This document shows, piece by piece, positions 1 to 59,518 of a stretch of DNA of 64,000 nucleotides. The DNA comes from Cordylochernes scorpioides (lineage: Eukaryota > Arthropoda > Arachnida > Pseudoscorpiones > Chernetidae): contig CP092869.1 of assembly GCA_030710605.1 (NCBI GenBank), forward strand, positions 10,875,425 to 10,939,424, in the 5' to 3' direction. The notes below the pieces were generated by a model, which saw nothing but the letters and a program-made list of their open reading frames with translations, was not told where the DNA came from and did no database searches. Numbering within the stretch: position 1 is the first letter of the stretch; the number at the start of each line of letters is the position of its first letter. The position numbers and the translations under genes are program-made.

Positions 1-116
1 CTGAGAGACATAATGAAGTGGTGAGATGCGTCCACTTCAACTTGGCTAGAAAATATAATTTCACAGAGAACAAGAAGATAAAGCTCCAAAGAAACACATT
101 GCCACTCATTCAATAA
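1..116 (+). pseudogene. LINE ORF2 C-terminus (left-arm copy)
   Basis: The last ~38 codons of a non-LTR retrotransposon ORF run in from the window edge and stop at TAA 114-116 after LPLIQ. The sequence is identical to the minus-strand reading of 36049-36164, where the rest of the reading frame can be followed to 36642. Directly downstream the 3' region is expanded into 81-bp tandem repeats. Only the tail is present here. Confidence 0.8.
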
Positions 117-516
117 CTTATATCATTGCAGTAAGGTCTGTAGAGATAATATTTGATGATATTGTTGAAAAGAAACACATTGCCACTCATTCAATAACTT
201 ATATCATTACAGTAAGGTCTGTAGAGATAATATTTGATGATATTGTTGAAAAGAAACACATTGCCACTCATTCAATAACTTATATCATTACAGTAAGGTC
301 TGTAGAAAAAATATTTGATGATATTGTTGAAAAGAAACACATTGTCACTCATTCAATAACTTATATCATTGCAGTAAGGTCTGTAGAGATAATATTTGAT
401 GATATTATTGAAAAGAAACACATTGCCACTCATTCAATAACTTATATCATTGCAGTAAGGTCTGTAGAGATAATATTTGATGATATTGTTGAAAAGAAAC
501 ACATTGCCAGTAAATT
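91..516 (+). repeat. 81-bp satellite, left arm (5 copies)
   Basis: Five complete 81-bp units start at 91, 172, 253, 334 and 415, with a partial sixth from 496. The first unit begins inside the last codons of the LINE ORF, so the repeat unit was built from the ORF end plus the 3' UTR. Units differ by only a few substitutions. The right arm has six full units. Confidence 0.95.
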
Positions 517-539
517 TATTCGTTATAAATTTTATCGAT

Positions 540-725
540 AGATGGCAATTGAATTTATATTTTAAAAAAAGCTTGTAGAGCTTGAGACTTTTGATGGTGT
601 TTGCTGGGGATGAGTAGAGCTCATCAATGGATGAGTCAATACAGTCAATGATGTAGTTTGGAGTTGTAGGTTGACACTTAGTACATAGTGGGAAAACCTT
701 GCAACCATTCCACATTTTCCAAACA
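540..725 (-). pseudogene. Jockey-like LINE C-terminal fragment
   Basis: The minus-strand reading has a C-x2-C pair followed by P-x-T/P-x-x-IIDC and a D-E-L-Y-S-S segment. This is the kind of short cysteine/histidine tail found at the end of many arthropod LINE ORF2 proteins. Related fragments lie at 4880-4970 and 7553-7682 (+), and at 28540-28665 (-). The right-arm counterpart is 35320-35455 on the plus strand. There is no RT domain nearby. Confidence 0.55.
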
Positions 726-901
726 AATTTCTAATCAACAAATGATCTTCAATAAAAGAGTTGTTACTTTTTAAGAAAAGGTATCCCCTGATCGTGTAAT
801 TGGAAGTTGCTGATGGCTTGCGCCATCTGTCGGAATAAATAAACTAATCGTTTTTTTTTTCCCCGAGTTGGACAAATGCATTTTATTTATTATTCAAGAA
901 A

Positions 902-942
902 AGCTAACAACGTAGGCTGTTGGCTCTCATCAGCTTGGTGCA
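902..942 (-). ncRNA. Hammerhead remnant, GAAA segment deleted
   Basis: The RNA-sense minus strand keeps the stem I side CACCAAG, the core CUGAUGAG and the stem II hairpin. It then jumps from GCC straight to the outer stem I strand, so the GAAACGCGUC block is missing. It cannot be catalytic. The same deletion is present in the right-arm copy at 35071-35120. Confidence 0.7.
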
Positions 943-1082
943 ATTTTTTTTTCTTGACACCTGAACTTAATACAAATCACTTTTGTACTATTTTTTTACA
1001 TAATTTGGCGTTCTCACCGATACCTATTTCGTGAGTTTTCAGGATGCTTCTAAGACCAATTTTATTTTGGTCGTTGAGGTAC

Positions 1083-1133
1083 AGCTTGCACCACGCTGAT
1101 GACTACCAGCTAGGAACGCGTACGTGGTTAGCT
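1083..1133 (+). ncRNA. Hammerhead remnant, altered core
   Basis: Stem I (ACCACG with CGUGGU) and the outer AGC/GCU helix are kept, and CUGAUGA is intact. Stem II is rearranged to CUACCAGCUAG, and the GAAA block reads GGAAC, so the A15.1 position is lost. Probably inactive. The right-arm copy at 34872-34922 (-) carries the same changes. Confidence 0.75.
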
Positions 1134-1489
1134 TTTCTTGATTAATCAAGAATGTGTATTTGGCCAATTCTGGAATAATTTTGAAACAAATCAACGATCA
1201 GTTGATATTTATTCCGATAGATGGCACAAGCCATCAGCCAACTTTCAACTGCACGATAAGGAGACGCCTTAAAAAAAATTATTCACCTGATTCCAGTTCA
1301 CACAATTTCACTTTGGCACTATTTTTTCGCAGGTTTTTAATAGTTACAAAAAAAAAAAAAACTCGTTATGTTTTCTAAATTGATTCATCTTAACAAACAA
1401 GATTTTTCTTATTCAAATTATGCGTATCTTATTTTGATGATGCTGATAATAAAAGGTGAAAGTGTCGTACTATATATATTGCCTTATGA

Positions 1490-1712
1490 AAAAGGCATCT
1501 CCTTATCATACAACTGAAAGTTTCTGATGGCTTGCACCATCAATCGGAATAAATATCAACTATTTTAGTTGATTTTTAATCTAGTTGATTCTTGGTAGTT
1601 GGCCAATTCTGGAATAATAAAAAATCAACGAAAATTGTTGATAATTATTCCTATAGTTGACGCAAGCCATCATAAAATGTCAGTTGCACGATAAGGAGAT
1701 GCTTTTTTCTTA
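1490..1712. mobile_element. Hammerhead-family foldback lacking the ribozyme
   Basis: It has the same terminal arms as the hammerhead foldbacks, facing each other directly with only a short AT-rich loop between them. It is a derivative that lost the ribozyme segment. The right-arm equivalent is 34298-34519. Confidence 0.75.
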
Positions 1713-1863
1713 TAATAATTTATGCACCTTATCCCAGTACAATAACACATTTGTACTATTTTTTCACATATATTGGCTTATTATTATATCATTATTATTT
1801 AATTATCTCTAGTACACATGTGTATGTGTGGTACAGGTCATGATAATCATGTTGGGTAGAAGT

Positions 1864-2183
1864 TAACGAATGATGCCGCAGCCACCGTATTCCCCAGATC
1901 TGACCCCCTGTGACTTTTTCTTGTTCCCTAAACTGAAGAGGCCCATGAAAGGACGACGTTACGCTACGCTTGACGAGATAAAGACGGCAACGAAGGAGGA
2001 GCTGAAAAAGATTTTTTAAAATGATTTTTTGAAGTGCTTCGAAGATTGGAAAAACCGTTGGCACAAGTGTATAATATCTCATGGGGATTACTTTGAAGGG
2101 GACAAAATAGGTATTCAATGAATAAATAAATAATTTTTGAAAAAACACAAAAGTCGCGATACTTTTTGAACACACCTCGTATA
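1864..2183 (+). pseudogene. 5'-truncated mariner transposase, left arm
   Basis: The plus-strand reading starts at the signature PQPP-x-SPDLTPCDFFLFP, which holds the third catalytic aspartate of mariner (DD34D) transposases. It continues through the typical C-terminal helix (KR-M-GRRYATLDEI, then CFEDWKNRWHKCI). The element ends with the mariner-type terminal inverted repeat, ending TTTTTGAACACACCTCGTA. The N-terminal DNA-binding part and the first two aspartates are missing. This arm has an extra in-frame stop after KKIF that the right-arm copy lacks. Confidence 0.85.
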
Positions 2184-2312
2184 ATAATAATCTGATTCAA
2201 GGTATATACATTTTTTTTCTACGAAAAAAAAAAATTGAAAAGATAGCGAGTTTTTAAAACTATTTACCAGAATATTTGTTAAAAGATATTTTGAGGATAA
2301 ACACCAGTCAGC

Positions 2313-2992
2313 AAATGACAACAGCCAATCACATGTTTGCTTACATCTTGAGCGTTATCTAATCAGGCGCTATGTTTTAGATTTGGACAAAACATTGATT
2401 AACATTCCCGGGTAGTTGGCGATTTACGCTCCAGGAGCCCGGGTTACCTCAAATGACAACAGCCAATCACGTGTTTGCTTACATCTTGAGCGTTATCTAA
2501 TCAGGGGCTATGTTTTAGATTTGGACAAAACATTGATTAACATTCCCGGGTAGTTGGCGATTTACGCTCCAGGAGCCCGGGTTACCTCCAATGACAACAG
2601 CCAATCACGTGTTTGCTTACATCTTGAGCGTTATCTAATCAGGCGCTATGTTTTAGATTTGGACAAAACATTGATTAACATTCCCGGGTAGTTGGCGATT
2701 TACGCTCCAGGAGCCCGGGTTACCTCCAATGACAACAGCCAATCACGTGTTTGCTTACATCTTGAGCGTTATCTAATCAGGCGCTATGTTTTAGATTTGG
2801 ACAAAACATTGATTAACATTCCCGGGCGATTTACGCTCCAGGAGCCCGGGTTACCTCAAATGACAACAGCCAATCACGTGTTTGCTTACATCTTGAGCGT
2901 TATCTAATCAGGCGCTATGTTTTAGATTTGGACAAAACATTGATTAACATTCCCGGGTAGTTGGCGATTTACGCTCCAGGAGGGCCCGGGTT
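2313..2992 (+). repeat. 138-bp minisatellite, left arm (5 units)
   Basis: The GCCAATCAC marker recurs at 2324, 2462, 2600, 2738 and 2869, giving a 138-bp unit, with the last unit shortened by a 7-base deletion. Each unit contains two CCCGGG blocks around a GTTGGCGATTTACGCTCC core, which can form a GC-clamped hairpin in an AT-rich setting. The right arm has only two units (33252-33530). Confidence 0.95.
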
Positions 2993-3204
2993 ACCTTTAT
3001 TTTCTCTCTCATTGATTAACACCAATCGATACCAATATGTATTGGCAACTTTGAAATAATCCTAAACCACAATGAAAACTATAATTTATTGAAATTATTT
3101 TTGTGGTTTCCCTTCTAATTTTATTTCAGATTCAAAATAGCATATATTCTTTATAATTTATGTTTTGTGTTTGTTATGCCTGATGTTTTATGTGAAAAAA
3201 AAAA

Positions 3205-3415
3205 GTTTTTTGGTCGTTGAGGTACAGCTTGCACCACGCTGATGAGGGCCAACAGCCCGAAACGCGTCTGTGGTTAGCTTTTCTTGATTAATCAAGAATG
3301 GGCATTCGGCCAATTCTGAAATAAACAAAAATCAACGAGATAGTTGATATTTATTCCGATAAATGGCGCAAGCCATCAGCAACTTTCAGTTGCACGATAA
3401 GGAGATGTCTTTTTT
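3205..3415 (+). mobile_element. Hammerhead element, single-arm copy
   Basis: It starts with TGGTCGTTGAGG ahead of the ribozyme, continues through the palindromic TTGATTAATCAAG segment, and ends with the ~70-bp terminal arm (GATGGCGCAAGCCATC, then CACGATAAGGAGATG). The opposing arm is absent. This copy carries the best-preserved hammerhead in the window. The right-arm allele is at 32812-33015 (-). Confidence 0.8.
3226..3279 (+). ncRNA. Type I hammerhead ribozyme, intact core
   Basis: Parts in order: outer stem I AGC; internal-loop bases UUGC; inner stem I ACCACG; core CUGAUGA; stem II GGGC with loop CAACA and GCCC; core GAAA; the palindrome ACGCGU, read as stem III (A15.1-U16.1); cleavage site GUC at 3266-3268; then the stem I return strand UGUGGU, internal loop UA and outer GCU. 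Every conserved catalytic position (C3, U4, G5, A6, G8, A9, G12, A13, A14) and the G10.1-C11.1 pair are present. The first stem I pair is a G-U wobble. Stem III has 1-2 bp as a monomer but 6 bp in a dimer. Self-cleavage after C3268 is predicted, not shown. Confidence 0.88.
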
Positions 3416-3587
3416 TTTATAACTTATGTTTTATGTTTACTAGGGAATTAGTTTGTCATACATACGAGAAAATTATTGAATTAAAAATGCATCAACATAA
3501 TATAATAATATAAAAAAATCTTTCATATAATGTGTAAAAATACAAAAATAATTTTCACAATGAGTTACTTTTTATTTTAAAACGCTA

Positions 3588-3722
3588 GCTTTCAAGCAAT
3601 AATCGCTCTTCAACGGGCTTAATAAAAAAACATCGACCATATTTTTGTAAATATTTCTTGTAAAATATAGTCGATGTTTTTTATTAAGCCCATTGAAGAG
3701 CGATTATCGCTTGAAAGCTATC
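3588..3722. repeat. Inverted pair of hammerhead-like hairpins, type GCGATTATCGC
   Basis: Two facing copies of a motif read as UUGAAGA, then hairpin GCGAUUAUCGC, then UUGAAAGCU. They are separated by an AT-rich loop that is itself palindromic (ACATCGAC... GTCGATGT). The order of a purine-rich GAAGA block, a stem II-like hairpin and GAAA is hammerhead-like, but CUGAUGA is not matched. The right-arm copy is 32515-32652. Confidence 0.6.
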
Positions 3723-4075
3723 ATTTTAAAATAAAATAAAAACATATTGTGGGAAAATATTTTTGTATTTTTTAAACGTTTTTCACAATTGTATCATGAA
3801 TAATGATGTGTGTGATCATTCTTGAGCTGAAATCAATCCCAATTAAACAATAAAGATGTTAGATTTCTATAAATAACAAAGAATAAAACGTGAAAAAAAA
3901 AAGGTGAAATTGTATTGGAATTAGGTGGATAAATTAAGAAAAAGGCATCTCCTGATTGTACAACTGAAAGTTGCTGATGGATTGCGCCATCTATCGGAAT
4001 AAATATCAACTAATCGTTGATTTTTAATTATCACAGGATTGGCAAAATACCCATTCTTGATTAACCATGAAAAAG

Positions 4076-4127
4076 ATAACCACGTACGCGTTTCGGGCTG
4101 TTGGCCTTTATCAGCGTGGTGCAAGCT
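4076..4127 (-). ncRNA. Hammerhead remnant, G8 mutated
   Basis: RNA sense is the minus strand. Stem I, stem II, GAAA and ACGCGU are all kept, and the site is GUA. The core reads CUGAUAAAG instead of CUGAUGAGG, which removes the essential G8 and the first stem II pair. Predicted inactive. The right-arm counterpart at 32107-32160 (+) reads CUGAUUAAG and has ACGUGU. Confidence 0.8.
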
Positions 4128-4609
4128 GTACCTCAACGACCAAAAAAAAAAAAAGGGTGGGGGTCTTTCAGGCATCCTGAAAAATCATGAAACCGGTAGT
4201 TAAGGCCAAAAGTGCGTTAGAACAACAATTGACAAAATCCATCAGCAATCGAATGTCTTTTTTTCTTTTTTTTTTAAGAATAAAAAGCCCTAATCATTGT
4301 AATTGATAAATACTACTCTGAAATTTGTGTTTAAAAAGTAAAAGGGTTTTCAAACACCGAAAATAAAAAAAAATCCTAGAAACAAATCTAAGTTTTTATA
4401 TTTAATATAGAACTTCGTTGTGTGTATTCAAATCAGCCCCTGAGTTAAAAAAAAAAATACACGTGCCATTGAAGAGCCAATCAGAGGGAGAATAAACTGT
4501 ACATTGTTAATTTTTTTTATTTAGTCTATCAGTGTTGATTTTATTAACCAATCAGAATGTAGTGTTTCTTCAGCTCAGGGGCTGCATTTAACAACGAAGT
4601 TCTAAACTC

Positions 4610-4975
4610 GTATGAAAAAGGAGGAGGGGGAGCAGTAACAATCTCGCTAAAAAACCTGGGCTCAGCTGATAGTAGCCTGTAAGGGCTCCTGATCCAGGGA
4701 TACGGAATGTACTCCATGTTAGGAGCGGCTGTACATGGTGTCTGCTCCTTATGTCAGACATTTCATATTGTAGCTAAGTCGGCCTCCTACTGAGTAGTGC
4801 TCCCAGTCTTAATGACAAAGGCAGACACGCATTCTACTTCGCCCAATGGATAATTATTGATGTCAAATCTCCTTTGATGAGCTCTACTCATCCTTCCAGC
4901 AGACACCATCAACAAGCTTTACAGACTTGATGCTTTGATGAAATTGTTGAGTGGAGATAAGTAAAAAAAAGAGAC
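4610..4975 (+). repeat. Dispersed LINE-tail repeat
   Basis: It begins at GGAGGAGGGGGAGCAGTAAC and ends in TTGAGTGGAGATAAG. The same block is at 8360-8665 (+), 21060-21425 (-), 26330-26640 (-) and 31010-31385 (-). Its last part encodes the D-E-L-Y-S-S tail seen in the Jockey-like LINE fragments, so I read it as the 3' end of that LINE. No RT sequence is attached. Confidence 0.55.
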
Positions 4976-5157
4976 GATTTCTATATTAAATATAAAAATT
5001 TGGGTTCGTTTCTAGGAAGGTATTTTTATTTTGTGGTATTAATGATTTTGAAGGATTTTTTAAATAACACCAGTTTCTCGTGGCTTTTTTTTAAGTACAG
5101 ATTCCAATATTTTACAAAGAAACATTCCTCTTGTTATTAGAACTGCAATAGACCAGT

Positions 5158-5466
5158 CTATACAGTGTGGGGGTCGGTGAAAGGTCTAAACCGTTAGTTT
5201 TCGACCGCTACGATCCGGGTTCAATTCCCGCATTGGGCGGAAAAAAGAAATGCCCCAATAGCCCCCGATTCTTGCAAAAGTCCCAACCCCACCAGCGAGT
5301 GCAAGTAACCAAAACGGGGCTCTGGCACATTTGTAAGTGCAAAGTCGAACTACTTTTCACCTGTGTAGACATGTGGTGCACTAACAGTAATGTCGCCTAC
5401 TTCTACCCACCATGATAAACATGGCCTGTACCATGTGTACTAGGGATAAGCAAAAAAAAAAAAAAG
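5158..5466 (+). mobile_element. tRNA-derived SINE, family 1 (full length)
   Basis: The head (5166-5240) has a pol III B box, GGTTCAATTCC at 5218-5228, in a tRNA-like context. The body contains CACCAGCGAGTGCAAGTAAC and TAAGTGCAAAGTCGAA. The element ends with CTAGGGATAAGC and an A-run. A second full copy is at 62780-63095 (+), and a tail-only copy lies in the right arm at 30537-30665 (-). It encodes no protein and would depend on a LINE. Confidence 0.8.
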
Positions 5467-5512
5467 TCTATAGAGTTGAATTATGAAAGAATAAGAAACT
5501 ATTTATTTTTTC

Positions 5513-6180
5513 TCACTATAAGCATTTGGAGTCTTACTTCAATCGTGTTATTCCGATGACTGTAAAGCGATACGTTGCCCAAGTGAGAATTCTTTTTTCA
5601 CAATTTAAACATAATCACTTTATATTATTGATATCTAAAAACTTAGATTGCACTCTATGCAATAGCGAATTTAACCACGACTTTCCACAATATGTTTTAT
5701 TATCCGGCACTGGAGAAGAAGATGCAAATTCTCTGTCAAAATATTGGTTATTATAACAATTCTCTATATTTTCTAATCGCAAAAGTAGTGAAAAGCAAAC
5801 CCAATGCATTAGCATTTCACAAATTCTGGAAAACAGCATAGACAATAGACGCAAGACAGAAGATGGATCCAACTTGAAGAAAGGTCGATGTTAATATCCA
5901 CTTTCTGTAAATAACTGTTATGTTTACTTCTGTTTATCTATCTGGGAGAATCCTGTATGGAACGAGTGTCCTTTATAAAGCTTCTTGTTGTTTTACAATG
6001 ATTAGGCCTTTTTATTCTCCGTTTTATAGGGATCCTACATCTTTAATGTTTGATGGTAAATCTTTGCAGAATCAGAAGAGTCAATACCATATTATGTTGA
6101 TACATTTTTAGTTTATTGATTAAGTCGCATGTATGACGGGCTAATTCTCTAATAAACATAAGATTTATATTATAATAAAG
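5513..6180 (+). pseudogene. LINE ORF2 C-terminus and 3' region, left arm
   Basis: An open stretch reads through a cysteine pair in LDCTLCNSEFNHDFPQ, a C-x2-C ... H tail of the kind that ends LINE ORF2 proteins, then breaks down in stops. The counterpart in the right arm (29810-30480, minus strand) keeps a slightly different frame. RT and endonuclease domains are missing, so this is a 5'-truncated insertion. Confidence 0.6.
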
Positions 6181-6397
6181 ATATTATTTTTAATCTGAAA
6201 TAAAAGAATTAGAAAGGAAACTACAAAATAATTTCAATAAAATAAATTATAGTCTTCATTGTCGTTTAGAATTCATTTTAAAGTTGCCAATACTTATGGT
6301 GTATATACATATTGGTGCCAATCATAGAATAAATTGAAATCGATATGCAAATACAAAAACAACAAAAAGCTTTGTTAAAACCCTTTAGTGAAAATAC

Positions 6398-6566
6398 GAA
6401 ACTATTTTAGACGCGTAAGATTCTTTTTGAAATTAAACAATTTCTACTGCTCTTACTGAAATGGAAAAATTAATGGGAGGGCCTGGCTCATCAGTGGTGA
6501 ACCCTCCCAGCGGTTTCGCCAGTTTGAAACTGAATCTTACGCGTCTAAAATAGTTTCGGATTTTCA
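6398..6566. mobile_element. Foldback MITE, CCTCCCA family
   Basis: Inverted ends GAAACTATTTTAGACGCGTA and their complement enclose a core with GGGAGGG, GCTCATCAGTGGTGAAC and CCTCCCAGCGGTTTCGCC. The core recurs at 8930-9065, 25930-26130, 29440-29600, 43270-43480, 46340-46550, 50800-50925, 56950-57210 and 61590-61700, which makes this one of the commonest families in the window. No coding capacity. Confidence 0.75.
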
Positions 6567-7410
6567 TAACAGATGGCGCGCTTGTGCATCATAAAACCTT
6601 TTATATTTTCTACAAGCACCACACACACAGAGAGAGAAATGTAGGATACATGCAGGAAAAAGGCAATAATACCATTAATATATAAGCAATGTTATTATCT
6701 GGTTCCTAAATAATTTTACTAGGTGCCGCTCGAAAAGATATTTACAACAATGAATATAATATGTGAAGGTTATTCACATATTAAAACAAAGTGTCCAATA
6801 CGGGATTTGATCCTGGTTCATGGCTGTCGGGAATCGAGGGTTTTAACTGCTGGTTCACCGACTTAACAGACTCTTGTTCTCTTGTTCCAAAATAACTTTC
6901 TTAGGTACCGCTCAACAATAACAACCTAGTTTATGATATTTACAACAATGGTTATTATATCTGAAGGTTATTCACATATTGAATCAAAAAGTCCAATGCG
7001 GAATTCAATCCCGGTTCATAGCTGTCGGGAATCGAGGGTTTTAACCACTCGCGATCAGCGACTTCTTTTTTTGCAATGTTATAATTATTATTTTTAAAGC
7101 TAATCGATATATTTAATGGTAATATGATATTTATATATAAGAAAACTTAATTAAGACAATCAAGTTAATAAATAAATTAGTTTGGGTAAATTGGAGTGGA
7201 AAATAAATGTAGATATGTGAATAAGTTTTTTTTTTTTTTTTTGCAATTTGAGTTTGTTTATATAAAAAAGAGGGGATTTATTCAAACTCACACCCTTCAA
7301 CTAGTGGCGGTATATAATAAGATAATAAGCTAATAGAATGTTAAATATAATAAAAATAAATTCAAAAAATTATTTATTAACTTAGGTTGTAAAATAAATT
7401 CAAAGGATTT

Positions 7411-7833
7411 CAAAACGATATACCAATCGGAATAATTATATACAAAAAGTTTCTTTATTCAATAAAAATGGCAAGTTTTCAAGTGTTAGCTCTTCATCAG
7501 GCCAATTGTTTCGCAAATTCCTACAATGCCTCTATATATATATATTGTAGGACTATGCGTGCAATTCTTAACCTACAACCCCAAACCATATTATTGACTG
7601 TATTGACTCATCCATTGATGAGCTCTACTCTTCCCCGACAGACACCATCAACAAGCTCTACAAGCTTGATACCCTGATATGATTATTGAGTGGAGATAAG
7701 AAAGAATAAGTAATATTGTAGGAATTTGCTAAACAATTGGCCTGATGATGAGCTAACACTTGAAAGCTTGCCATTTTTTATTGAATAAAGAAACTTTTTG
7801 CAATTATCCTGATTGATATATCGTTTTTAATTA
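7411..7833. mobile_element. Foldback element enclosing a LINE tail, left arm
   Basis: About 120-bp inverted arms run from 7411 (AAAACGATATACCAATCGG) and from 7833 inwards. They meet around a short LINE tail at 7553-7682. Each arm contains CCTGATGATGAGCTAACAC followed by TTGAAAGC, a weakly hammerhead-like arrangement. The right-arm counterpart is 28388-28792. Confidence 0.7.
7553..7682 (+). pseudogene. LINE C-terminal fragment inside foldback
   Basis: The plus frame reads PTTPNHIIDCIDSSIDELYS and ends at TGA, closely resembling the fragment at 540-725. One stop interrupts it upstream. It is the C-terminal tail only. Confidence 0.55.
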
Positions 7834-7936
7834 TATATTATTTCTCATATTCGTTCTCACGCAATTCTGGCCTTAACTACCCGTTTCATGATTTTTCAGG
7901 ATGCCTGAATGACCAATTTTTTGGTTGTTGAGGTAC

Positions 7937-7990
7937 AGCTTGCACCACGCTGATAAGGGCCAACAGCCCGAAACGCTTATGTGATTATCT
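7937..7990 (+). ncRNA. Hammerhead remnant, left-arm allele
   Basis: Stem II and GAAA are intact, but the core reads CUGAUAAG (G8 lost), the palindrome has become ACGCUU, and the stem I return strand is weakened to UGUGAU. Predicted inactive. The right-arm allele at 27000-27052 has a restored-looking CUGAUGAG core. Confidence 0.75.
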
Positions 7991-8130
7991 TTTCTTGATT
8001 AATCAAGAATTGGTATTTAACCAATTCTGGAATATTTTTTAAAAAATCAACGAATAGTTAATATTTATTCCGATAGATGGCGTAAGCCATCAGCAACTTT
8101 CAGTTGCACGATAAGGAGATGCCCTTTTTC

Positions 8131-8355
8131 TTTTTAAATTTATATATTAGTTAAAAATGTAATCACAATAGCTTAGCGTCATCTCTCTCTATCGGTGAAA
8201 ATTATAAACAAATGATCCTGAATATTGATATAATAAAAATCGAACAATTAGTATGCAGGTAAGTATTTTGCCATTACAGAAAATTCAAGAAATATAAACA
8301 ACAAAAATCTTTATCAATAAATTTTAGTGTTATACAGATTCTCAGAAACTTTGCC
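8131..8355. other. AT-rich stretch, nothing recognised
   Basis: There is no open frame, terminal repeat or RNA-like structure that I can support. It is shared with the right arm (26645-26860). Confidence 0.5.
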
Positions 8356-8359
8356 GGTC

Positions 8360-8665
8360 CCAAGCCCGGATGAAAACGGAGGAGGGGGAGCAGTAACAAG
8401 CTCACTAAAAAACCTGGGCTCAGCTAATAGTACCCTGTAAGGGTTCTAGGGATACAGGATGAGTTTGTACTCCATGTTAGAAGCGGCTGCACATGGCGTC
8501 TGTTACTCATGTCAGAGGCGGCCATTTCTTTCGAGCTAAGTCGGCCTGACACTGAGTAGTACTCCCAGTCTTAATGACAAAGGCAGACGCATTCTACTTC
8601 ACCGAGTCATGATGGTTGTCAAAGCTTGATACCCTAATATCATTGAGTGGAGATAAGAAAGAAGA
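8360..8665 (+). repeat. Dispersed LINE-tail repeat, second left-arm copy
   Basis: Same block as 4610-4975, with an internal deletion before the TTGAGTGGAGATAAG end. The right-arm counterpart is 26330-26640 (-). Confidence 0.55.
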
Positions 8666-9584
8666 TAAAATATAAACAGCAAAAATATTTATCAGGAACA
8701 TTTGGTGTTTTACAGATTCTCCGACACTACTCGCATATACTATATAGGGTATATACAGGAATAGCAGTAATAGTAAAGATAATCAGAACTACAACGCAAT
8801 GACGCTTCATCTATGTAATTCTACTATCCTAAAAGCTTATGTACATAGTTTGCTTGAATACCGTTTCTAAGATTCCACCCTTCAGTGTTACATATAAAAG
8901 CAGAATGACCCAATACAGTATTAGAGCTCTAAAGAAGCGGTCTGGTAGATTAAATTAGCGAAACCGCTGGGAGAGTTCACCAATGATGATCCAAGCCCTC
9001 CAAATATTTTTTCATCGCAGTAAGGACAGTAGAAGTTTGAATTATATGTGAAAAGAAGCATTCGCGTCTTAATGTCTTAATTCATTATAATCGGCAATGT
9101 TATTTATAATGTATCAAATAAGAGGAAAGAAACAAGGAAGAGCTTGGTATAACTTTTAAACAAGCAATTAAGAACAAGCAGTTACTTTTCTTAAAAAAAA
9201 AAAAACAATAGTGATTTAAGAAACATAGTAACTATTCAAGTATGAATTTTTCTTTTTAAAATTTTGATAAAAATATATTCATTACAGTTATAAGGGCAAT
9301 ATATAAGTGTGTTATTTGAAAAGAAAAATTTATGCTTCAATAGTTACATTTCTTGAATAGCTTTCATCCAGTAAATCTGATTTTTAAGACATTTCGACAA
9401 AAAAGAATTCAGATGGTTTTTTTGCCTTTCCCTGCATCCTAAGGTAGTCATCCTTTTCTTAGAACAAATTTGTTTACATAGATAAAGAGGAAAGAATTTT
9501 GTATAATAATTATTTAATTCGCTAAGTTCTAATTATGTAAATATTTACCTGTATATAAATATTATCTTTCAGTTTCTTGGAAAG

Positions 9585-9640
9585 TTACCTGTCGAAGGAC
9601 GTCAAAGTCCGAAAACTTGCCGAATTTACAGCATTAATAA
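9585..9640 (+). repeat. Hammerhead-like hairpin, single copy
   Basis: Read as RNA: CUGUCGAAG, hairpin GGAC-GUCAAA-GUCC, then GAAAAC, with AATAAA just downstream. The block order matches a hammerhead core, but A6 and the U7-G8 context are not canonical. A near-identical copy is in the right arm at 25340-25415 (-). Confidence 0.4.
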
Positions 9641-9785
9641 AAGAAACACGTCGTCGTTAACTTTTGTTCTTTCTTCAAAAAAAGAATGTCATTGTCAGGT
9701 TAAAAGTAAAAGTTAAGAATTTGGTAAGGATTTTTGAATGCATTAACATATCGAATTGTTTGAGTCAAAAAACGATCCATTAAAA

Positions 9786-10075
9786 AAGTTTATATAAAAA
9801 AAGGCGTACCTGGATCTGTAAAAAAAAAAAACCAATTTGTTTCTCAAAATATTTCGAGAGATTGCTCCCTCTTTATCAATATATTGCACAATAAACTTAA
9901 TATACAAATTCTTGTAAATCACAAAGTTGTTTTCATGTAATCTACAAGAATTTGTAAATTACGTTTACTGTTTCAATAAATTGATAAAGAAGGAGCAATC
10001 TCTCGAAATGTTTTGAGAATTTTTTTTTTTTTAACAGATCCAATTACGCCCTTTTTTATATAAAACTTATCGAAA
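9786..10075. repeat. Inverted repeat with TTGATAAAG...CGAAATATT hairpins
   Basis: The arms start at GTTTATATAAAAAAAGGCG and contain CCTGGATCTGT and a hairpin flanked by TTGATAAAGAGG and CTCGAAATATTTTGAG. Copies are in the right arm (24905-25215) and at 50336-50510. The blocks resemble a decayed hammerhead arranged as an inverted pair. Confidence 0.6.
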
Positions 10076-10137
10076 GGTATTCAGAGATGTATTTACATTT
10101 AGATTTGTTTTGAAAATAAAGCAATCCATAGATAAAT

Positions 10138-10343
10138 ATTTAATTAAAAAGGCATATATTGGATCAAAATATCATTTATTTTACCAATATTTCAGTTGGC
10201 TGAACGCCAACCTTTATCAAGGTGTTATAACATATAGACATTAAATGTTATAATACCTTGATAAAGGTTGGCGTTCAGCCAACTGAAATATTGGTAAAAT
10301 AAATTATATTTTCATCCAATATATGCCTTTTTAATTAAAGATT
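10138..10343. repeat. Inverted pair, TTGATAAAGGTTGGCG hairpin family
   Basis: Two facing ~95-bp arms each hold CTTGATAAAG, a strong hairpin GGTTGGC-GTTCA-GCCAAC, and TGAAATATTGGTA. The ends are TTTAATTAAAAAGGC and its complement. The right-arm copy is 24638-24845, and a solo copy is at 42935-42980. The layout resembles stem II plus GAAA of a hammerhead, with a diverged first core strand. Confidence 0.65.
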
Positions 10344-11340
10344 TAGATTTGTGTTTACAGTTACGACAAAGGGACACTATTTGTAGTTGAATCATCAATA
10401 AAATAAAATATATTTTTGACCAACGTTTCGTTATTTGTATGAAGTGCTCTTTATATAAGATACTTAAAATATTAAACTAATAACTCAATTAGAAGAGAAC
10501 TGATTTATTTAAAATGTAACATTAAAAGATATCGTTATAAAAGAATCGTCAATGAAATATATTTTGAACAAAGTTTCCTTATTTTTATGACGTGCTCTTT
10601 ATATAAGAGATACATAAAATATTTAAAAAACTCAGAAAAACTAATAACTCAATTATAGAAAATAATTAAAATATTTAAAATGTAACATAAAAAAAACATC
10701 TACTCACCACCATGGTTGCTTGCAAATTTGATTATATGACTAAGTAATTTTAACAGTTAGTATGAATTTGCTTCAAAAAAATACTTTAAAAACGGAAATA
10801 AACAAGAGGAAAACAAGTTGTTGTTGTTTCTAGATAACAAGAAAGATATTTGTGGTGGGCAGAACTCAAATAACCAGGAAACATACTCTGTGATTTTTTG
10901 TTTTTTTAATCACTGTTTCAACAGAATAATAATGATAATATTTTACATTTTTATTAATCATATTTTTTATTAAAATTTATTTTTATGATGAAATATATAT
11001 ATATATTCCTTAATATTAGCAGAAAGTAAATTTAAAAAGTAATAATTTTTTTTTTTTGCAATTATTATTGGAAATATTAAAACATTTAAACAGTGTTGGG
11101 TAAAATTTATTCATGATTGTATTTTCTATAATACCAATTACAAGTAATCATAATTGTATTTTTATAATTATAATTAAAAGTAATTAAAAATTATATTTTC
11201 TATAATTATAAATATAAGTAATCATAATTACATTTGCTATAAATATAATTATAAGTAATTGTAATTAGAATTCTGATTTTTTAATATTTTTATTTATGAA
11301 AACAATAGAAAAAATAAAAAATAAAAAGGTTAAGTGTTGA
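10344..11340. other. AT-rich stretch without identifiable gene
   Basis: Long A/T runs are broken by one tidier motif, ACCAACGTTTCG near 10420, which resembles the GAAAC side of the hammerhead-like families. No ORF above ~40 codons looks coding. It is conserved in order in the right arm. Confidence 0.5.
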
Positions 11341-11344
11341 TATT

Positions 11345-11436
11345 AAGAATAAAAAAGGCATATCCTGACAATGAGCACATGGCGCTCTGCCATCTGAAAA
11401 GCACATGTGCTCCTGATCAGGATATGCCTTTTTTAT
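11345..11436. mobile_element. Small foldback MITE, GGCATATCCTGA family
   Basis: Inverted ends AAAAAGGCATATCCTGA face each other, with GAGCACATG and a GGCGCTCTGCCATCTG core between. The right-arm copy is 23555-23648. Larger relatives are 54434-54675 and the hammerhead carrier at 59031-59405, so this is a deletion derivative of the same family. Confidence 0.75.
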
Positions 11437-11485
11437 TTTTAATATTTATTTATATTTTTATTCCATAATTAAGAATCAAAACAAA

Positions 11486-11656
11486 ATATCACAGTAGAAC
11501 TACCTCCGTGTAAAGGACAACACCTAATTGCAGATCCAAAGTGTCCTTTAGGGAAAGTTATCTTCTTACCAAAGAGTTGCTAAGTTGTAAAAATGGCAAT
11601 TTTGCAAATGAAAACTGTCCTTTGTAGAGAGGTGTCATCTCAAGGAGGTTCTACTG
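11486..11656. mobile_element. pogo-like MITE
   Basis: Terminal inverted repeats CAGTAGAACtACCTCC and GGAGGTTCTACTG are typical of pogo/Tigger-type miniature elements that insert at TA. The internal sequence (AAGTGTCCTTTAGGGA, GTCCTTTGTAGAGAGG) recurs at 16541-16700, 23335-23501 and 46982-47135. Non-coding. Confidence 0.7.
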
Positions 11657-11860
11657 TATTACAAAAATTAAATATATCATAAACTATTTATAATTAAACA
11701 CAAGTAAAACTTATTGATAAGATAAAATATTTTATTTATGAGTCTAAAGATCAAAATCTGGAACAATCATTAATTTACAAATACAAAGAAGGATTCTAGC
11801 TGTTTCTGAATCATCATCAAGGTCAACAGATTATTAAAAATAAATTATATGTTATAATAT

Positions 11861-12341
11861 ATATAAAAATGAATGTATGTGTTTGTGTCCTTTATGCCTG
11901 ACCAAACCACTCATTGGAACGCCATGAAACTTTGGGAAGTTATTTAGTATAGTAATGGGAAGGTTTCTAGCAAATAAAATTTTTGAAATAACTTTTCACC
12001 TAAAAATAATCAAGATAAATATTCTAATTTATCTGTTATAATTCAACAATCTGCTCTAAATATTATCATGATGATACGATGATTTTGTAATGTAGAAAAT
12101 TAGGAAAGACAAAATTCAGGATGACACAGAAATTTATTTGAGACAAGAATAATGATACAATTCCAAGGCAAGATACTATTCCTTTAACTTCCAATTACCG
12201 AGGGAACCAATTAATATTGATTTTATTCAACTTATCGAGTATTTTTCAAGGGACCGGGAAAAAATGTTCACTTTATCGAGAGATTCGTTAGACAAACCTT
12301 TACTCGGGTAAAACCCGGGCGAAGCCGGGTACGTCCTCTAG
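11861..12341 (+). mobile_element. Non-autonomous Helitron-like element, family A
   Basis: The 5' end is of the TATATATAAAAATGAATG type, and the 3' end has a GC hairpin CCCGGGC-GAA-GCCGGG followed by a short spacer and CTAG, with T as the next base. A 3' hairpin ~10 bases before CTRR is the Helitron signature. No Rep/helicase gene is present. The right-arm allele is 22657-23138 (-). Confidence 0.75.
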
Positions 12342-12380
12342 TATGTTATAATATTTCCGAGAGAAAGAGGTGGTACAGTA

Positions 12381-12540
12381 GAAAAAGGTGACTTAAAAGC
12401 ACTCTATTTATGCCGCCTTCCTGCATGGTCTAGCGGGGGCCACCTCTATTTCACCAACTTGCCATATGTAAATAGCCAGGACATGGTAACTCGTGATATG
12501 TGCTCGAATGTAACGCCTGTAAGCTGAGACAAAATAAATA
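12381..12540 (+). repeat. Retroelement 3' end with AATAAA
   Basis: The sequence from GCCGCCTTCCTGCATGG to GACAAAATAAATAAAAG recurs at 20727-20855 (+) and in the right arm at 22440-22610 (-). The conserved block ending in AATAAA suggests a retrotransposon or processed transcript tail. Which one is unclear. Confidence 0.4.
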
Positions 12541-12949
12541 AAAGTCTATTTATACCTATTATAGGCAAAATATGAAAACATTTTTTAATATCACACATTG
12601 CCTATGTATTCAAAAGAATGTATAGGCAAAATCAAATCATAATATGTGCAAGATAAAAGAAAATCTTGGAATACGAAGACAGTATGCCCTAGAAAATGCC
12701 ATAAATACAAATAAAGAATTAAAGGTGCAAAGAAAATAACTTACACAATGTAGTTAATGCTAGAGAGCTAATATACCCGGCTTCGCCCGATTTTCATCTG
12801 TGTGAAAGTTTGCCTAATGAGCAATTATTAAAACAATATTTTCGTGTCGAACTCCCTACTGAATCTATTTTAATCAAAATACATCAATGATTGATACTTC
12901 TCTATTCCAAAACTATTGAATTGCCATTGAAAAATTTTGCATATAATAA

Positions 12950-16789: not shown

Positions 16790-17062
16790 ATATTTACGAA
16801 CGGAAAAATATGTACAGGGTAGCCTAGTGGACATGGCATCTGCCTGGTAAGCGGAACACTGTGGGTTCGATTCCCATCTCTGGACACTTTTATTTTTCCG
16901 TTTATCATTACTCTTCACAATTCATCCTTTCATAATTCATCCCTAAGGTTAGAAATAATCGTTATTTCTCCTTAAAAATAAATTTCGATTTTTCGTTTAA
17001 AAGAAACACATGCGGGATAATTTTCAAATGTCGTTTTATAATCATAAGCCGCATTATATTGT
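16790..17062 (+). mobile_element. tRNA-derived SINE, family 2
   Basis: A tRNA-like head (16811-16886) is followed by TTTATTTTTCCGTTTATC, CTCTTCACAATTCATCC, GGTTAGAAATAATCG, AAATTTCGATTTTTCG and an end around GCCGCATTATATTGTATT. Copies or halves are at 20140-20462, 31600-31841, 42298-42592, 44590-44910, 58500-58990 and 63365-63620. Several copies are inverted pairs. A polymorphic copy in the right arm has a 12-bp target duplication, which identifies the family as a retroposon. Confidence 0.75.
16811..16886 (+). mobile_element. tRNA-like head of SINE family 2
   Basis: Parts in cloverleaf order: D arm GCCTAGTGG-ACATGGC (A box), anticodon stem TCTGC/GCGGA with 7-base loop, T arm GTGGG-TTCGATT-CCCAT (B box). 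The better copy at 17764-17837 (-) has a 6-of-7 acceptor stem and loop CCGGTAA, nominal anticodon GGT. Position 33 is C rather than U, so it is not a functional tRNA. Confidence 0.75.
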
Positions 17063-17670: not shown

Positions 17671-20134
17671 TCTACTTATATAATTGCCTTATTCTGTCTG
17701 TGTGAAGTTCACTGTGTGAAGTTCACGGATAGATTTTGGTCAGAATGGATAAAATAAAAAAAGTGTCAAGGGATGGGAATCGAACCCACGACCTTCCGCT
17801 TACCGGGCAGATGCCATGACCACTAGGCTACCCTGGACATATTTTTCCGTTCATCTATATATATAAAAATGAATGTATGTGTGTCTGTTTGTTTGTTTGT
17901 CCTTTATGCCTGACCAAACCACTCATTGGATCGCCATGAAACTTTGGGAAGTTATTTAGTATAGTACTGGGAAGGTTTCTAGCAAATAAAATTTTTGAAA
18001 TAACTTTTTGCCTAGAAATAATCAAGATAAATATTCTAATTTATCTGTTATAATTCAACAATCTGCTCTAAATATTATCATGATGATACGATGATTTTGT
18101 AATGTAGAAAATTAGGAAAGACAAAATTCAGGATGACACGGCAATTTATTTGAGACAAGAATATTGATACAATTCAAAGGCAAGATACTATTCCTTTAAC
18201 TTCCAATTACCGAGGAAACCAATTAATATTGATTTTATTCAACTTATCGAGTATTTTTCAAGGGACCGGGAAAAAATGTTCACTTTATCGAGAGATTCGT
18301 TAAACAAACCTTTACTCGGGTAAAACCCGGGCGAAGCCGGGTACATCCATACAAGAATAATGATACAATTCCAAGGCAAGATACTATTCCTTTAACTTCC
18401 AATTACCGAGGGAACCAATTAATATTGATTTTATTCAACTTATCGAGTATTTTTCAAGGGACCGGGAAAAAATGTTCACTTTATCGAGAGATTCGTTAAA
18501 CAAACCTTTACTCGGGTAAAACCCGGGCGAAGCCGGGTACATCCATACAAGAATAATGATACAATTCCAAGGCAAGATACTATTCCTTTAACTTCCAATT
18601 ACCGAGGGAACCAATTAATATTGATTTTATTCAACTTATCGAGTATTTTTCAAGGGACCGGGAAAAAAATGTTCACTTTATCGAGAGATTCGTTAGACAA
18701 ACTTTTACTCGGGTAAAACCCGGGCGAAGCCGGGTACGTCCGCTAGTAAATTATATATAAATTAGAAATTAAAACTATATATTCAAATTATTCTACTTAG
18801 CTCACGAACAGCGCCCTCTATCAAGGTTATAAATACGTTTAAAATCGAAATCTTTTCAAAATTTTATTAATAATAGTTCGCTTACTAATTAGAATACTTG
18901 ATCTAAATCGAAATATTTATAGACGCTCGCTCGATTTGAAGATTTATATCGTAACTAATCTGACTGTAAAGTTTGGAGCGGGACGTTTCACAAGAGTGAC
19001 ATCCACGGCGCCAATTTATAATTGTAACGAATAGTGTTTGAATAAAACATTTAATCGGGTAAACCCAATCTCCATTCTGTCACCCCGGAAGCCCTGAACT
19101 GGCTGAAGGCCTTGCCTCTCAGACTTTAATGACCGATATGTCCTCACTTCTTTTTTCTAGATTTAATTCATTTTGTCATAAGCATAAATAAATATAATTG
19201 CCTTATTCTGTCTGTGTGAAGTTCACGGATATATTTTGGTCATCAACGCGCGCATCATCATTATGATCATTATCATTATCTAATAATAATTATTTATTTA
19301 TTATCTACTTATATAATTGCCTTATTCTGTCTGTGTGAAGTTCACTGTGTGAAGTTCACGGATAGATTTTGGTCAGAATGGATAAAATAAAAAAAGTGCC
19401 AAGGGATGGGAATCGAACCCACGACCTTCCGCTTACTGGGCAGATGCCATGACCACTAGGCCACATGACCACAATTTATAATGGAAACAAATAGTATTTG
19501 AATCAAAACATTCAATCGGGTAAAACACGGGCGTTGCCCGGGTCATTCGGCTAGTCTACTTATATAATTGCCTTATTCTGTCTGTGTGAAGTTCACGGAT
19601 AGATTTTGGTCATGAACGCGCGCATCATCATTATGATCATTATCATTATCTAATCATAATAATAATAATAATTATTATTATTATACTTATCTACTTATAT
19701 AATTGCCTTATTCTGTCTGTGTGAAGTTCACGGATAGATTTTGGTCAGAATGGATAAAATAAAAAAAGTGTCAAGGTATGGGAATCGAACCCACGACCTT
19801 ACGCTTACCGGGCAGATGCCATGACCACTAGGCTACCCATACACGATGAAATCTTTATGAAAATTCACATTTTTATTTTTATATTTTCAAGACACACACA
19901 GTTTGCGGCGGGACGTTTCACAAGAGAGACATCCACGGCGCCAATTTATAATTGTAACGAATAGTATTTTAATTAAAACATTTTAAAAACACACAGTTTG
20001 GAACGGGACGTTTCACAAGAGTGACATCCATGGCGCCAATTTATAATTGTAACGAATAGTATTTGAATTAAAACGTTTTAAAAATATATACGCACTCGGG
20101 TAAAACCCGGACGTTGCCCGGGCCATTCGGCTAG
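17671..20134 (+). mobile_element. Nested Helitron-like array, families A and B
   Basis: Family B units start TCTACTTATATAATTGCC and end with hairpin CGGGC-GTT-GCCCGGG, a short spacer ATTCGG and CTAG. Starts are at 17671, 19304, 19555 and 19690, and ends at 19554 and 20134. A family A element (17854-18746) is inserted into the first unit. Units 19304-19554 and 19555 onward abut directly. Some B units contain a reversed tRNA-like head from SINE family 2 (17764-17837, 19398-19466, 19774-19843). No Rep/helicase ORF. Confidence 0.7.
17854..18746 (+). mobile_element. Helitron-like family A with triplicated 3' end
   Basis: The 5' end TCTATATATATAAAAATG follows A, and the 3' end CCGCTAG precedes T, the expected A|T insertion context. 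The last ~193 bp (from ACAAGAATAATGATACAATT to the GC hairpin) occurs three times in tandem. The element at 51816-52697 has the same three-fold structure, so both derive from one triplicated master. Confidence 0.8.
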
Positions 20135-22077: not shown

Positions 22078-22177
22078 NNNNNNNNNNNNNNNNNNNNNNN
22101 NNNNNNNNNNNNNNNNNNNNNNNNNNNNNNNNNNNNNNNNNNNNNNNNNNNNNNNNNNNNNNNNNNNNNNNNNNNNN
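22078..22177. other. Assembly gap (100 N)
   Basis: Exactly 100 undetermined bases, the usual placeholder for a gap of unknown size. It separates the Gypsy fragment from the first base of the right inverted arm. Confidence 0.98.
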
Positions 22178-22656
22178 TTGCTCATTAGGCAAACTTTCAC
22201 ACAGATGAAAATCGGGCGAAGCCGGGTATATTAGCTCTCTAGCATTGACTACATTGTGTAAGTTTTTTTCTTTACACCTTTAATTCTTTATTTGTATTTA
22301 TGGCATTTTCTAGGGCATACTGTCTTTGTATTCCAAGATTTTCTTTTATCTTGCACACATTATGATTTGATTTTGCCTATACATTATTTTGAATATATAG
22401 GCAATGTGTGATATTAAAAAATGTTTTCATATTTTGCCTATAATAGGTATAAATAGACTTTTATTTATTTATTTTGTCTCAGCTTACAGGTGTTACATTC
22501 TAGCACATATCACATGTCCTGGCTATTTACACATGGCAAGTTGGTGAAATAGAGGTGGCCCCCGCTAGACCATGCTGGAAGGCGGCATAAATAGAGTGCT
22601 TTTAAGTCACCTTTTTCTACAGTACCACCTCTTTCTCTCGGAAATATTATAACATA

Positions 22657-23138: not shown

Positions 23139-23334
23139 ACATATAATTTATTTTTAATAATCTGTTGACCTTGATGATGATTCAGAAACAGCTAGAATCC
23201 TTCTTTGTATTTGTAAATTAATGATTGTTCCAGATTTTGATCTTTAGACTCATTAATAAAATATTTTATCTTATCAATAAGTTTTACTTGTGTTTAATTA
23301 TAAATAGTTTATGATATATTTAATTTTTGTAATA

Positions 23335-27070: not shown

Positions 27071-27149
27071 ATACTGGACATTCAGGCATCCTAAAAAATC
27101 ATGAAACGGGTATTTAAGGCCAGAATTGCGTGAGAACGAATATGAGAAA

Positions 27150-28379: not shown

Positions 28380-28387
28380 TAAAATAT

Positions 28388-43555: not shown

Positions 43556-43866
43556 GCATCTCCTTATCGTGCAACTGAAAGTTGCTGATGGCTTGCGCAA
43601 AAATCGGAATAAATATCAAGTATTCTCGTTGATTTTTAATTATTCCAGAATTGGCCAAATACCCATTCTTGATTAATCATCTGCGTGATGATGAGGGCCA
43701 ACAATCCGAAACGCGTCCGTGGTTAGCTTTTCTTAATTAATCAAGAATGGGTATTTGGCCAATTCTGGAATAATTAAAAATCAACCAGAATAATTGATAA
43801 TTATTCCGATAGATGGCGCAAGCCATCAGCAACTTTCAGTTGCGCAATAAGGAGATGCCTTTTTCT
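43556..43866. mobile_element. Hammerhead foldback with partial ribozyme
   Basis: Both ~70-bp terminal arms are present. The loop contains a hammerhead lacking its 5' stem I strand (43681-43729): GAUGAUGAG, stem II GGGCCAACAAUCC, GAAA, ACGCGU, GUC, CGUGGU. C3 and U4 are changed and the partner of CGUGG is gone, so it should be inactive. Confidence 0.75.
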
Positions 43867-44063
43867 TTTCATAATTTATGCACCTTATCCCAGTACAATA
43901 TCACATTTGTACTATTTTTTTCACATTGAATATTTGGATTTATTCCTCCAATGAGGTTTTGAAAAGGTACTAAAAAAATCTCAACTACTAACAGTCCCTG
44001 AATTGATATTGCGGATTACAAATACTGTACTTATGCATTTAGATACTGCAACAATCAGCTACA

Positions 44064-58990: not shown

Positions 58991-59030
58991 ATATACTAAT
59001 TAATGGAAAAACAATAGAAAATAAGTGGGT

Positions 59031-59405
59031 CAGGTGTTGATATTAAAAATAAAGAAAGCATATCCTGACCACGAGCACATGTGCTTTTTAGATAGCAGAG
59101 CGCCATCTAGTGGATCAAAAATAAACTAACGTTTATTTAACTTTTTTTTGCTCCGTGATTGATTTCTCAAGAAACCTCTGGGACCAAAATTATTTTTGGT
59201 CGCAGTGGTACAGCCTACTCCACGCTGAGGAGCGCCAACAGCTCGAAACGCGTTCGTGGATAGCTTTTCTTGATTTGTCAATAAATTGGGTTGGCCAAAT
59301 ATCACGGAGCAAGTTAAATAAACGTTAGTTTATTTTTGCTCCACTAGATGGCGCTCTAATATAAAAAGCACATTTGCTTGTGGTCAGGATATACTTTCTT
59401 TATTT
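59031..59405. mobile_element. Foldback carrying an intact hammerhead
   Basis: Inverted arms of ~110 bp (AAAGCATATCCTGACCACG, CAGAGCGCCATCTAGTGGA, CTAACGTTTATTTAACTT and complements) enclose a central region with TTTTTGGTCGCAGTGG, the ribozyme and TTGATTTGTCAATAAATTGG. It has the same design as the 772-1280 family but with the terminal arms of the GGCGCTCTGC family, linking the two families. Confidence 0.85.
59212..59265 (+). ncRNA. Type I hammerhead ribozyme, intact core
   Basis: Outer stem I AGC/GCU; inner stem I CCACG/CGUGG with no mismatch; core CUGAGGA (variable position 7 is G); stem II starting GCG and closing CUC, with G10.1-C11.1 kept; GAAA; palindrome ACGCGU; cleavage triplet GUU ending at 59254. 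One internal stem II mismatch. All invariant positions are satisfied. The sequence is diverged from the 3226 copy, so conservation of the core argues for selection or recent activity. Confidence 0.85.
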
Positions 59406-59518
59406 TGAATACTAATTAACATAAAGCAATAACCGACATCTCTATAAACATGAAATCATTGATCAGGAATGTTTCTTTTACATATAATATATGCTAATGA
59501 AATGAACTTTTTGTCCAG

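What the first reader, a model, noticed from the sequence alone, without database searches (positions are those of the whole stretch)
3226..3279. Intact type I hammerhead ribozyme in a dispersed foldback element
Seen: CUGAUGA, stem II GGGC-CAACA-GCCC, GAAA, GUC, with stem I ACCACG/UGUGGU extended by an internal loop and AGC/GCU. Known: natural hammerheads need exactly this core, and a stem I internal loop that contacts loop II. Inferred: transcripts of this element self-cleave after C3268.
Basis: partly seen in the sequence, partly recalled or inferred. Interest (0 to 1): 0.9.

Follow-up and report, generated by a model that had tools for sequence, protein, structure and literature searches.

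The report
Self-cutting RNA jumping element
The stretch is a genuine self-cutting RNA motif inside one broken copy of a very abundant, non-coding jumping element, whose copies in this genome carry the insertion marks of Penelope-like retrotransposons, suggesting which enzyme moves such elements.

Summary
In detail: 3226-3279 carries an intact type I hammerhead core that would cleave after C3268. Helix III is one base pair with a CGCG tetraloop, a form reported to work better as a dimer, so this lone copy is probably weak. The 'foldback' reading of 3206-4147 does not hold: the two arms are separate insertions in opposite orientation, each with its own target-site duplication.

The whole genome (2.62 Gb, unnamed) shows what the element is: a 338-nt non-coding retrozyme. 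The exact 25-nt core occurs 12,581 times, that of a sister family 9,129 times; reversed-pattern controls gave 0.

In the 67 elements examined, 28 are head-to-head; 20 of these have one outer end at each of two fixed sites about 45 nt apart, mostly with 10-17 bp target duplications (16 of 20). The genome's Penelope-like elements (RT plus GIY-YIG) show the same layout. I read this as a circular or multimeric hammerhead RNA copied by Penelope-type machinery priming on both target strands.

Retrozymes are known, and Penelope mobilisation was already proposed. New, as far as I searched, is the Penelope-like tail pattern in retrozyme insertions. Cleavage, circular RNA and the enzyme are inferred, not shown.

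The parts
3226..3279 (+). type I hammerhead, predicted cleavage after C3268
   Evidence: one base different from the young monomer
3194..3425 (+). copy A1: 5'-truncated retrozyme copy (M74-289), 3' end at site s1
   Evidence: 94% to monomer M; edges set by the duplication
3183..3193 (.). target-site duplication of A1, left (ATGTTTTATGT)
   Evidence: 14 bp exact in mirror copy A1p
3426..3436 (.). target-site duplication of A1, right
3889..4275 (-). copy A2: 5' region, decayed hammerhead (G8 to A, 4090-4114), tail, 3' extension (alignment to M ends at M322, 11 nt inside the edge)
3879..3888 (.). target-site duplication of A2, left (AAGAATAAAA)
4276..4285 (.). target-site duplication of A2, right
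7844..8139 (+). copy B: 5' region, hammerhead with G8 to A, tail, end at s1; duplication doubtful (two-letter sequence, one mismatch)
771..1331 (.). copy C1/C2: head-to-head copy, left M288 (s1), right M338 (s2); hammerheads damaged; no duplication found
1488..1767 (.). copy C3/C4: head-to-head tails without hammerhead, left M288, right M338; 14-bp duplication with one mismatch (8 bp exact)
43557..43925 (.). copy D: head-to-head palindrome, hammerhead at the centre with C3 lost; left end M278 (just short of the s1 range), right end M338 (s2); 12-bp duplication
59004..59408 (.). copy E, family 2: head-to-head palindrome, hammerhead with a stem II C-U mismatch; 11-bp duplication

Best explanation
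The hammerhead belongs to a non-autonomous, non-coding retroelement of the metazoan retrozyme kind, monomer 338 nt. Proposed cycle: tandem copies are transcribed; hammerheads on neighbouring monomers cleave, probably as dimers through the palindromic ACGCGU around helix III; monomers are ligated into circles. A Penelope-type RT/GIY-YIG enzyme nicks DNA on both strands and starts reverse transcription inside the RNA, on one strand at s1 (about M286-293) and on the other at s2 (about M333-338). It copies the circle or multimer, sometimes several times round, and the two cDNAs are joined head-to-head between target duplications, mostly 10-17 bp. Shown: monomer, array, the two fixed ends, orientation bias, duplications, Penelope-like elements with the same layout in the same genome. 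Inferred: transcription, cleavage, circularity, which enzyme. The copy at 3226-3279 is a single 5'-truncated member ending at s1.
For: Core copies 6323+6258, reversed-pattern control 0. L009: five cores at exactly 338-bp spacing, the four core-to-core monomers 99.4-100% identical. Of 67 elements, 28 are head-to-head; 20 of these 28 have one s1 and one s2 end, 1 has s1/s1, 0 s2/s2, 7 another combination (20 of 21 s1/s2-type pairs mixed, binomial p 1e-5). End classes were set after seeing L001-L028; in the later loci L029-L068, 8 of 12 head-to-head elements are s1/s2 and none s1/s1 or s2/s2. Duplications: 16 of 20 are 10 bp or more against 8.7% of 380 mismatched flank pairs. Penelope-like elements: RVT_1 and GIY-YIG in one ORF in 5 of 7 proteins tested; 4 of 5 head-to-head pairs carry a further ~32 nt on one side only. 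Opposite-strand neighbours under 1 kb, read by eye from the 100 listed places of each search: family 1 -/+ 5, +/- 1; family 2 6 and 0; Penelope hammerhead 18 and 0. Inner junctions of 13 of the 16 head-to-head elements of L001-L028 are evenly spread (KS p 0.90), as expected of two independent cDNAs. PMC11167929 (main text read): a Penelope protein cuts and extends both strands and starts at two internal sites whose interval is the genomic tail.
Against: No significant sequence likeness between the s1/s2 ends and the Penelope ends (0.46 and 0.19 of all window pairs score as high); the match is one of layout. PMC11167929 saw no difference in start site between strands, so strict one-of-each is not explained by it, and there hammerhead mutants did not change insertion in vitro. 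5' ends of single-strand copies do not cluster at the cleavage site (M136/137), so the ribozyme leaves no mark on the insertions. 8 of 28 head-to-head elements are not s1/s2, and 1 of 5 Penelope pairs has the tail on both sides. Loci: 68 fetched, 67 used, all from the first 28.2 Mb of contig C1; L009-L018 were picked for multiple copies, the rest taken from the list with some skipped; every one has an exact core, which favours young copies. No expression data.
Confidence: 0.8

Rival explanations
1. It is a foldback DNA transposon (terminal inverted repeats, transposase-moved) that happens to carry a hammerhead.
For: Many copies are palindromic: 43555-43859, 59041-59411; three inverted-arm pairs within 3206-4147 are 83-94% complementary.
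Against: 35 of 67 elements are single-strand; a direct 338-bp tandem array exists; the two outer ends usually differ by the s1-s2 segment (20 of 28), so the inverted repeats are not flush with both duplications; A1 and A2 have separate duplications.
Confidence: 0.04
2. A retrozyme moved by LINE machinery with twin priming or template switching, the Penelope likeness being accidental.
For: An RT fragment with RVT_1 lies in the window (LINE clade recalled, not tested). Twin priming is recalled as giving 5' inversions.
Against: Twin priming is recalled as leaving a variable second end; here both outer ends are fixed in 20 of 28. The tail is called shared between and unique to Penelope-like elements (PMC11167929, abstract) and is seen in this genome's own Penelope-like elements.
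Confidence: 0.12
3. Self-priming (snap-back) of a cDNA makes the palindromes, as proposed for rotifer Penelope elements.
For: PMC3846280 (passages) argues this from palindromes at the junction; copy D joins at the palindrome TGATTAATCA (by eye).
Against: Inner ends of 13 head-to-head elements are spread evenly round the monomer, and snap-back alone should give the same outer end on both sides, not s1 against s2.
Confidence: 0.15
4. The hammerhead at 3226 is a dead passenger with no present role (compatible with the best explanation, which concerns the family).
For: Lone truncated copy, G-U at pair 1.1, weak helix III, non-native MFE; 7 of 8 window cores fail the strict descriptor.
Against: Core and stems of this copy are intact.
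Confidence: 0.6

Closest known systems
Metazoan non-LTR retrozymes (Cervera and de la Pena 2020, PMC7229834)
   Same: type I hammerhead, monomer in the 170-400 nt range, tandem copies, under 50% GC, duplications longer than 4 bp, no long ORF
   Different: here many insertions are head-to-head with two fixed ends; in the main text of that paper the word 'inverted' does not occur, and it proposes Penelope enzymes as movers without showing it
Newt/axolotl satellite hammerhead (HHR_Amex1, PMC7229834 passages)
   Same: helix III of one pair with palindromic tetraloop, ~330-bp repeat
   Different: not compared by sequence here; 126,247 motifs of both axolotl types in that paper against 12,581 exact cores here
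Penelope-like elements (PMC3846280 passages, PMC11167929 main text)
   Same: head-to-head copies, one-sided tail of tens of nt, short target duplications (8-10 bp in the rotifer), minimal hammerhead
   Different: the 338-nt unit has no RT or GIY-YIG ORF, and its hammerhead and ends are not alike in sequence to those of this genome's Penelope-like elements
Plant LTR retrozymes (PMC4918200, search listing; features from PMC7229834 and PMC7761336 passages)
   Same: hammerhead-bearing non-autonomous retroelement
   Different: type III hammerhead and LTRs there; type I here, and no LTRs seen

Membership tests
type I hammerhead ribozyme | core CUGANGA...GAAA...NUH with stems I and II, open at stem I | tested here: met
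   stem I 1.6 A-U to U-A (24 and 5) and stem II 10.2 G-C to C-G (25 and 4) among 30 distinct sequences, of which 14 have all ten pairs standard
type I hammerhead ribozyme | stable helix III | tested here: not met
   one pair plus CGCG; the reported axolotl HHR_Amex1 form shares this, and Penelope forms are reported to lack helix III
type I hammerhead ribozyme | Rfam gathering threshold | tested here: not met
   window; sub-threshold HH9; L009, L010 and L014
type I hammerhead ribozyme | self-cleavage and loop I-loop II contact | not testable with these tools
   needs an assay
metazoan non-LTR retrozyme | 170-400 nt monomer in direct tandem with type I hammerhead | tested here: met
   338 bp
metazoan non-LTR retrozyme | GC under 50%, no coding capacity | tested here: met
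   41% GC, longest open stretch 49 aa in three tandem copies
metazoan non-LTR retrozyme | target-site duplication longer than 4 bp | tested here: met
   16 of 20 at 10 bp or more
metazoan non-LTR retrozyme | no primer binding site or polypurine tract | not tested
   no search made
metazoan non-LTR retrozyme | expressed as circular RNA | not testable with these tools
   no RNA data
Penelope-like element | RT plus GIY-YIG ORF in the unit | tested here: not met
   longest open stretch 49 aa
Penelope-like element | head-to-head copies with a tail on one side | tested here: met
   20 of 28; the genome's own Penelope-like elements 4 of 5 pairs
foldback DNA transposon | inverted repeats flush with duplications at both ends, no direct tandem units | tested here: not met

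The most novel reading that the evidence does not exclude
Animal retrozymes are to Penelope-like elements what SINEs are to LINEs: circular hammerhead RNAs captured by Penelope RT, which primes one cDNA on each target strand at two set sites in the RNA (s1 on one, s2 on the other) and so builds head-to-head insertions. The s1-s2 segment, with its hairpin, would be the recognition signal, kept by structure rather than by sequence.
Probability: 0.65. Interest if true: 0.75.

Novelty: new variant of a known kind. Interest (0 to 1): 0.58.

Why it matters
Which reverse transcriptase moves animal retrozymes is open; PMC7229834 (discussion) and PMC11722881 (passages) name LINEs or Penelope-like elements as candidates. 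Here one genome holds more than 12,000 exact retrozyme cores and Penelope-like elements, some with long open RT/GIY-YIG frames and near-identical arms, that share the head-to-head, one-tail insertion layout. The question can be tested directly with a purified enzyme and a 338-nt RNA. The s1/s2 pairing also bears on how Penelope elements themselves insert, since it suggests that the two target strands use different start sites.

Tried and rejected
Rejected: one foldback element at 3206-4147 (two duplications). Rejected: ribozyme cleavage site as insertion end (no clustering at M136/137). Rejected: sequence homology between the retrozyme ends and the Penelope ends. Covariation within the 8 window copies alone was weak: 1 pair with change on both sides, reached by 68 of 500 shuffles; only the comparison of two families is convincing. 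Duplications in the window under three nulls: random window pairs 0.002-0.006 for C3/C4, D and E; neighbouring pairs with tandem arrays kept, 0.05-0.15; arrays masked, 0.005-0.010 for the exact ones of A1, A2, D and E, 0.05 for C3/C4. Edges of A1, A2 and E were settled partly after seeing the duplications. Led nowhere: exact-pattern scans of viral contigs and genome contigs, phage records: no match. Phylum test: PF14830 and PF03392 gave no match, but their controls were silent too, so nothing follows. My early guesses of a bivalve or an arthropod are unproven.

In one search L008 was dropped because it overlaps L016; L001-L003 have the same ends and lengths, and L033/L034 end alike and lie 3 kb apart, so the 67 are not all independent. 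In one search three of the 16 head-to-head elements of L001-L028 (L004, L019, L027) were left out.

Full report
Observation. The sequence at 3226-3279 is as described. A strict hammerhead descriptor finds it once in the window and twice in all in 100 shuffles. Eight matches to the 25-nt core lie in the window at 3 mismatches or fewer, but the other seven fail the strict descriptor: G8 is changed at 4090, 7950 and 32120, C3 at 43688, the base of stem II at 32964; 59225 has a stem II mismatch, and 27015 keeps the core but has a stem I mismatch. Rfam does not call it. Helix III is A3262-U3267 with a CGCG tetraloop. PMC7229834 (section 12 part 1, section 17 and passages read) describes such a helix III for the axolotl HHR_Amex1 and better cleavage as a dimer.

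Window architecture. Positions 1-12824 are repeated inverted as 36164-22178 in segments 87-98% alike, and the second copy begins right after the 100-N gap 22078-22177. I read this as the other haplotype scaffolded backwards, so the copies at 32120, 32964, 27015 and 34733 are not independent. The two arms at 3206-3420 and 3933-4147 have their own duplications: ATGTTTTATGT for A1 (14 bp in the mirror copy) and AAGAATAAAA for A2; D has 12 bp and E 11 bp (array-masked null 0.005-0.010 each). C3/C4 has 14 bp with one mismatch, 8 bp exact (null 0.05). C1/C2 has none, and B only a two-letter one.

Genome. The window lies in a 2.62-Gb genome of 24 contigs. The exact core occurs 6323+6258 times; the reversed pattern occurs 0 times. 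Fetched loci give the unit. L009 holds five cores 338 bp apart; the four core-to-core monomers are 99.4-100% identical, and the array ends at TTTTTTCACA in an AT repeat. Taking one monomer as M, rotated to start after this end, L009 holds five whole copies and a partial one in front; the hammerhead core is at M107, cleavage after M136, and a structured tail at M168-278. As a circle M folds at -114.4 kcal/mol (z -8.1, 0 of 100 shuffles as low); with the hammerhead stems enforced and core free it is -113.2, so the ribozyme fold costs little.

Ends. Of 67 elements (L001-L068 without L008) 28 are head-to-head, 35 single-strand, 4 other. Head-to-head: 20 of 28 have s1 (M281-295) at one end and s2 (M331-338) at the other, 1 s1/s1, 0 s2/s2, 7 another combination. 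Single-strand: 25 of 35 end at s1, 5 at s2, 5 elsewhere. The classes were drawn after L001-L028; in L029-L068 the figure is 8 of 12 with no same-same pair. Duplications of the 20 have median 12 bp; 16 of 20 reach 10 bp against 8.7% of 380 mismatched flank pairs. Many are AT repeats; target composition was not measured further. Inner junctions of 13 elements are evenly spread. Several head-to-head copies hold more than one monomer on a side (L010, L014, L018), so the template was longer than one unit or circular.

Second family. CTGACGAGCGCCAACAGCGCGAAACGCG occurs 4532+4597 times, control 0. Between the families stem I pair 1.6 and stem II pair 10.2 change on both sides, and so do pairs of the tail hairpin GGAATAA/TTATTCC against GGAGCAA/TTGCTCC. 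Family 2 shows the same two end types (L095 and copy E of the window).

Penelope-like elements. GIY-YIG gives 146 matches, with 150 of 17,015 first-look candidates scored. Of 7 ORFs tested, 5 have RVT_1 and GIY-YIG, 1 GIY-YIG only, 1 neither. Their hammerhead CTGACGAGGACAAAAGCTTTTTGTCGAAACGTC occurs 734+712 times, control 0. Of 18 Penelope 3' ends on hand 8 (one with a base change) carry a further ~32 nt and 10 do not; 4 of 5 head-to-head pairs have one of each, the fifth (L084) has it on both sides. PMC11167929 (main text read) reports that a Penelope protein cuts and extends both strands and starts at two internal sites whose interval is the genomic tail; PMC3846280 (passages) describes inverted pLTRs, a 31-bp tail on one of them and 8-10 bp duplications in a rotifer. 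The retrozyme ends match this in layout, not in letters.

Interpretation. The simplest account is a retrozyme RNA used by Penelope machinery. PMC7229834 (discussion read) calls Penelope-like elements a strong candidate; PMC11722881 (passages) names LINEs or Penelope-like elements. I found no paper in the searched library that reports a Penelope tail pattern in retrozymes (listings; few of the papers listed were opened). Most subscription papers are not in that library, and the 2014 and 2017 Penelope-hammerhead papers were not held.

What this means for 3226-3279. It is one truncated, single copy ending at s1, with an intact but probably slow ribozyme. The interest lies in the family. The organism was not identified.

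Noticed in passing
1-12824 and 22178-36164: Large inverted duplication, 87-98% alike by segment, the second copy starting right after the 100-N gap 22078-22177; looks like the second haplotype scaffolded backwards.
   Followed up: partly
88-509 and 35525-36077: 81-bp tandem array that stays open and would encode a 27-aa repeat (KHIATHSITYIIAVRSVEIIFDDIVEK-like).
   Followed up: no
36658-37206, - strand: RVT_1 fragment with a nearby Cys/His-rich stretch, perhaps a LINE remnant (clade recalled, not tested).
   Followed up: no
about 1820-2180: Mariner-like transposase remnant, recognised by eye only.
   Followed up: no
16812-16887, 17763-17838, 58730-58805: Three tRNA-Thr-like genes lying in dispersed repeats, perhaps a tRNA-derived element.
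   Followed up: no
11340-11461, 23530-23651, 36645-36696, 46899-46975, 54432-54675, 62125-62166: Further fragments resembling the second retrozyme family; the first two lie in the mirrored haplotypes.
   Followed up: partly
3226-3420 and other tails: The tail carries GATGGCGC (ATGGCGC in A1), in copy E CCACTAGATGGCGC, which resembles the CTCF binding motif (recalled); thousands of copies could matter for chromatin.
   Followed up: no
3536-3772: Palindromic element of about 237 bp between A1 and A2, seemingly unrelated to the retrozyme; it triggers sub-threshold microRNA matches in Rfam.
   Followed up: no
2312-2996 and 33249-33525: 138-bp tandem array next to the A1/A2 region, 5 copies in one haplotype and 2 in the other.
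   Followed up: no
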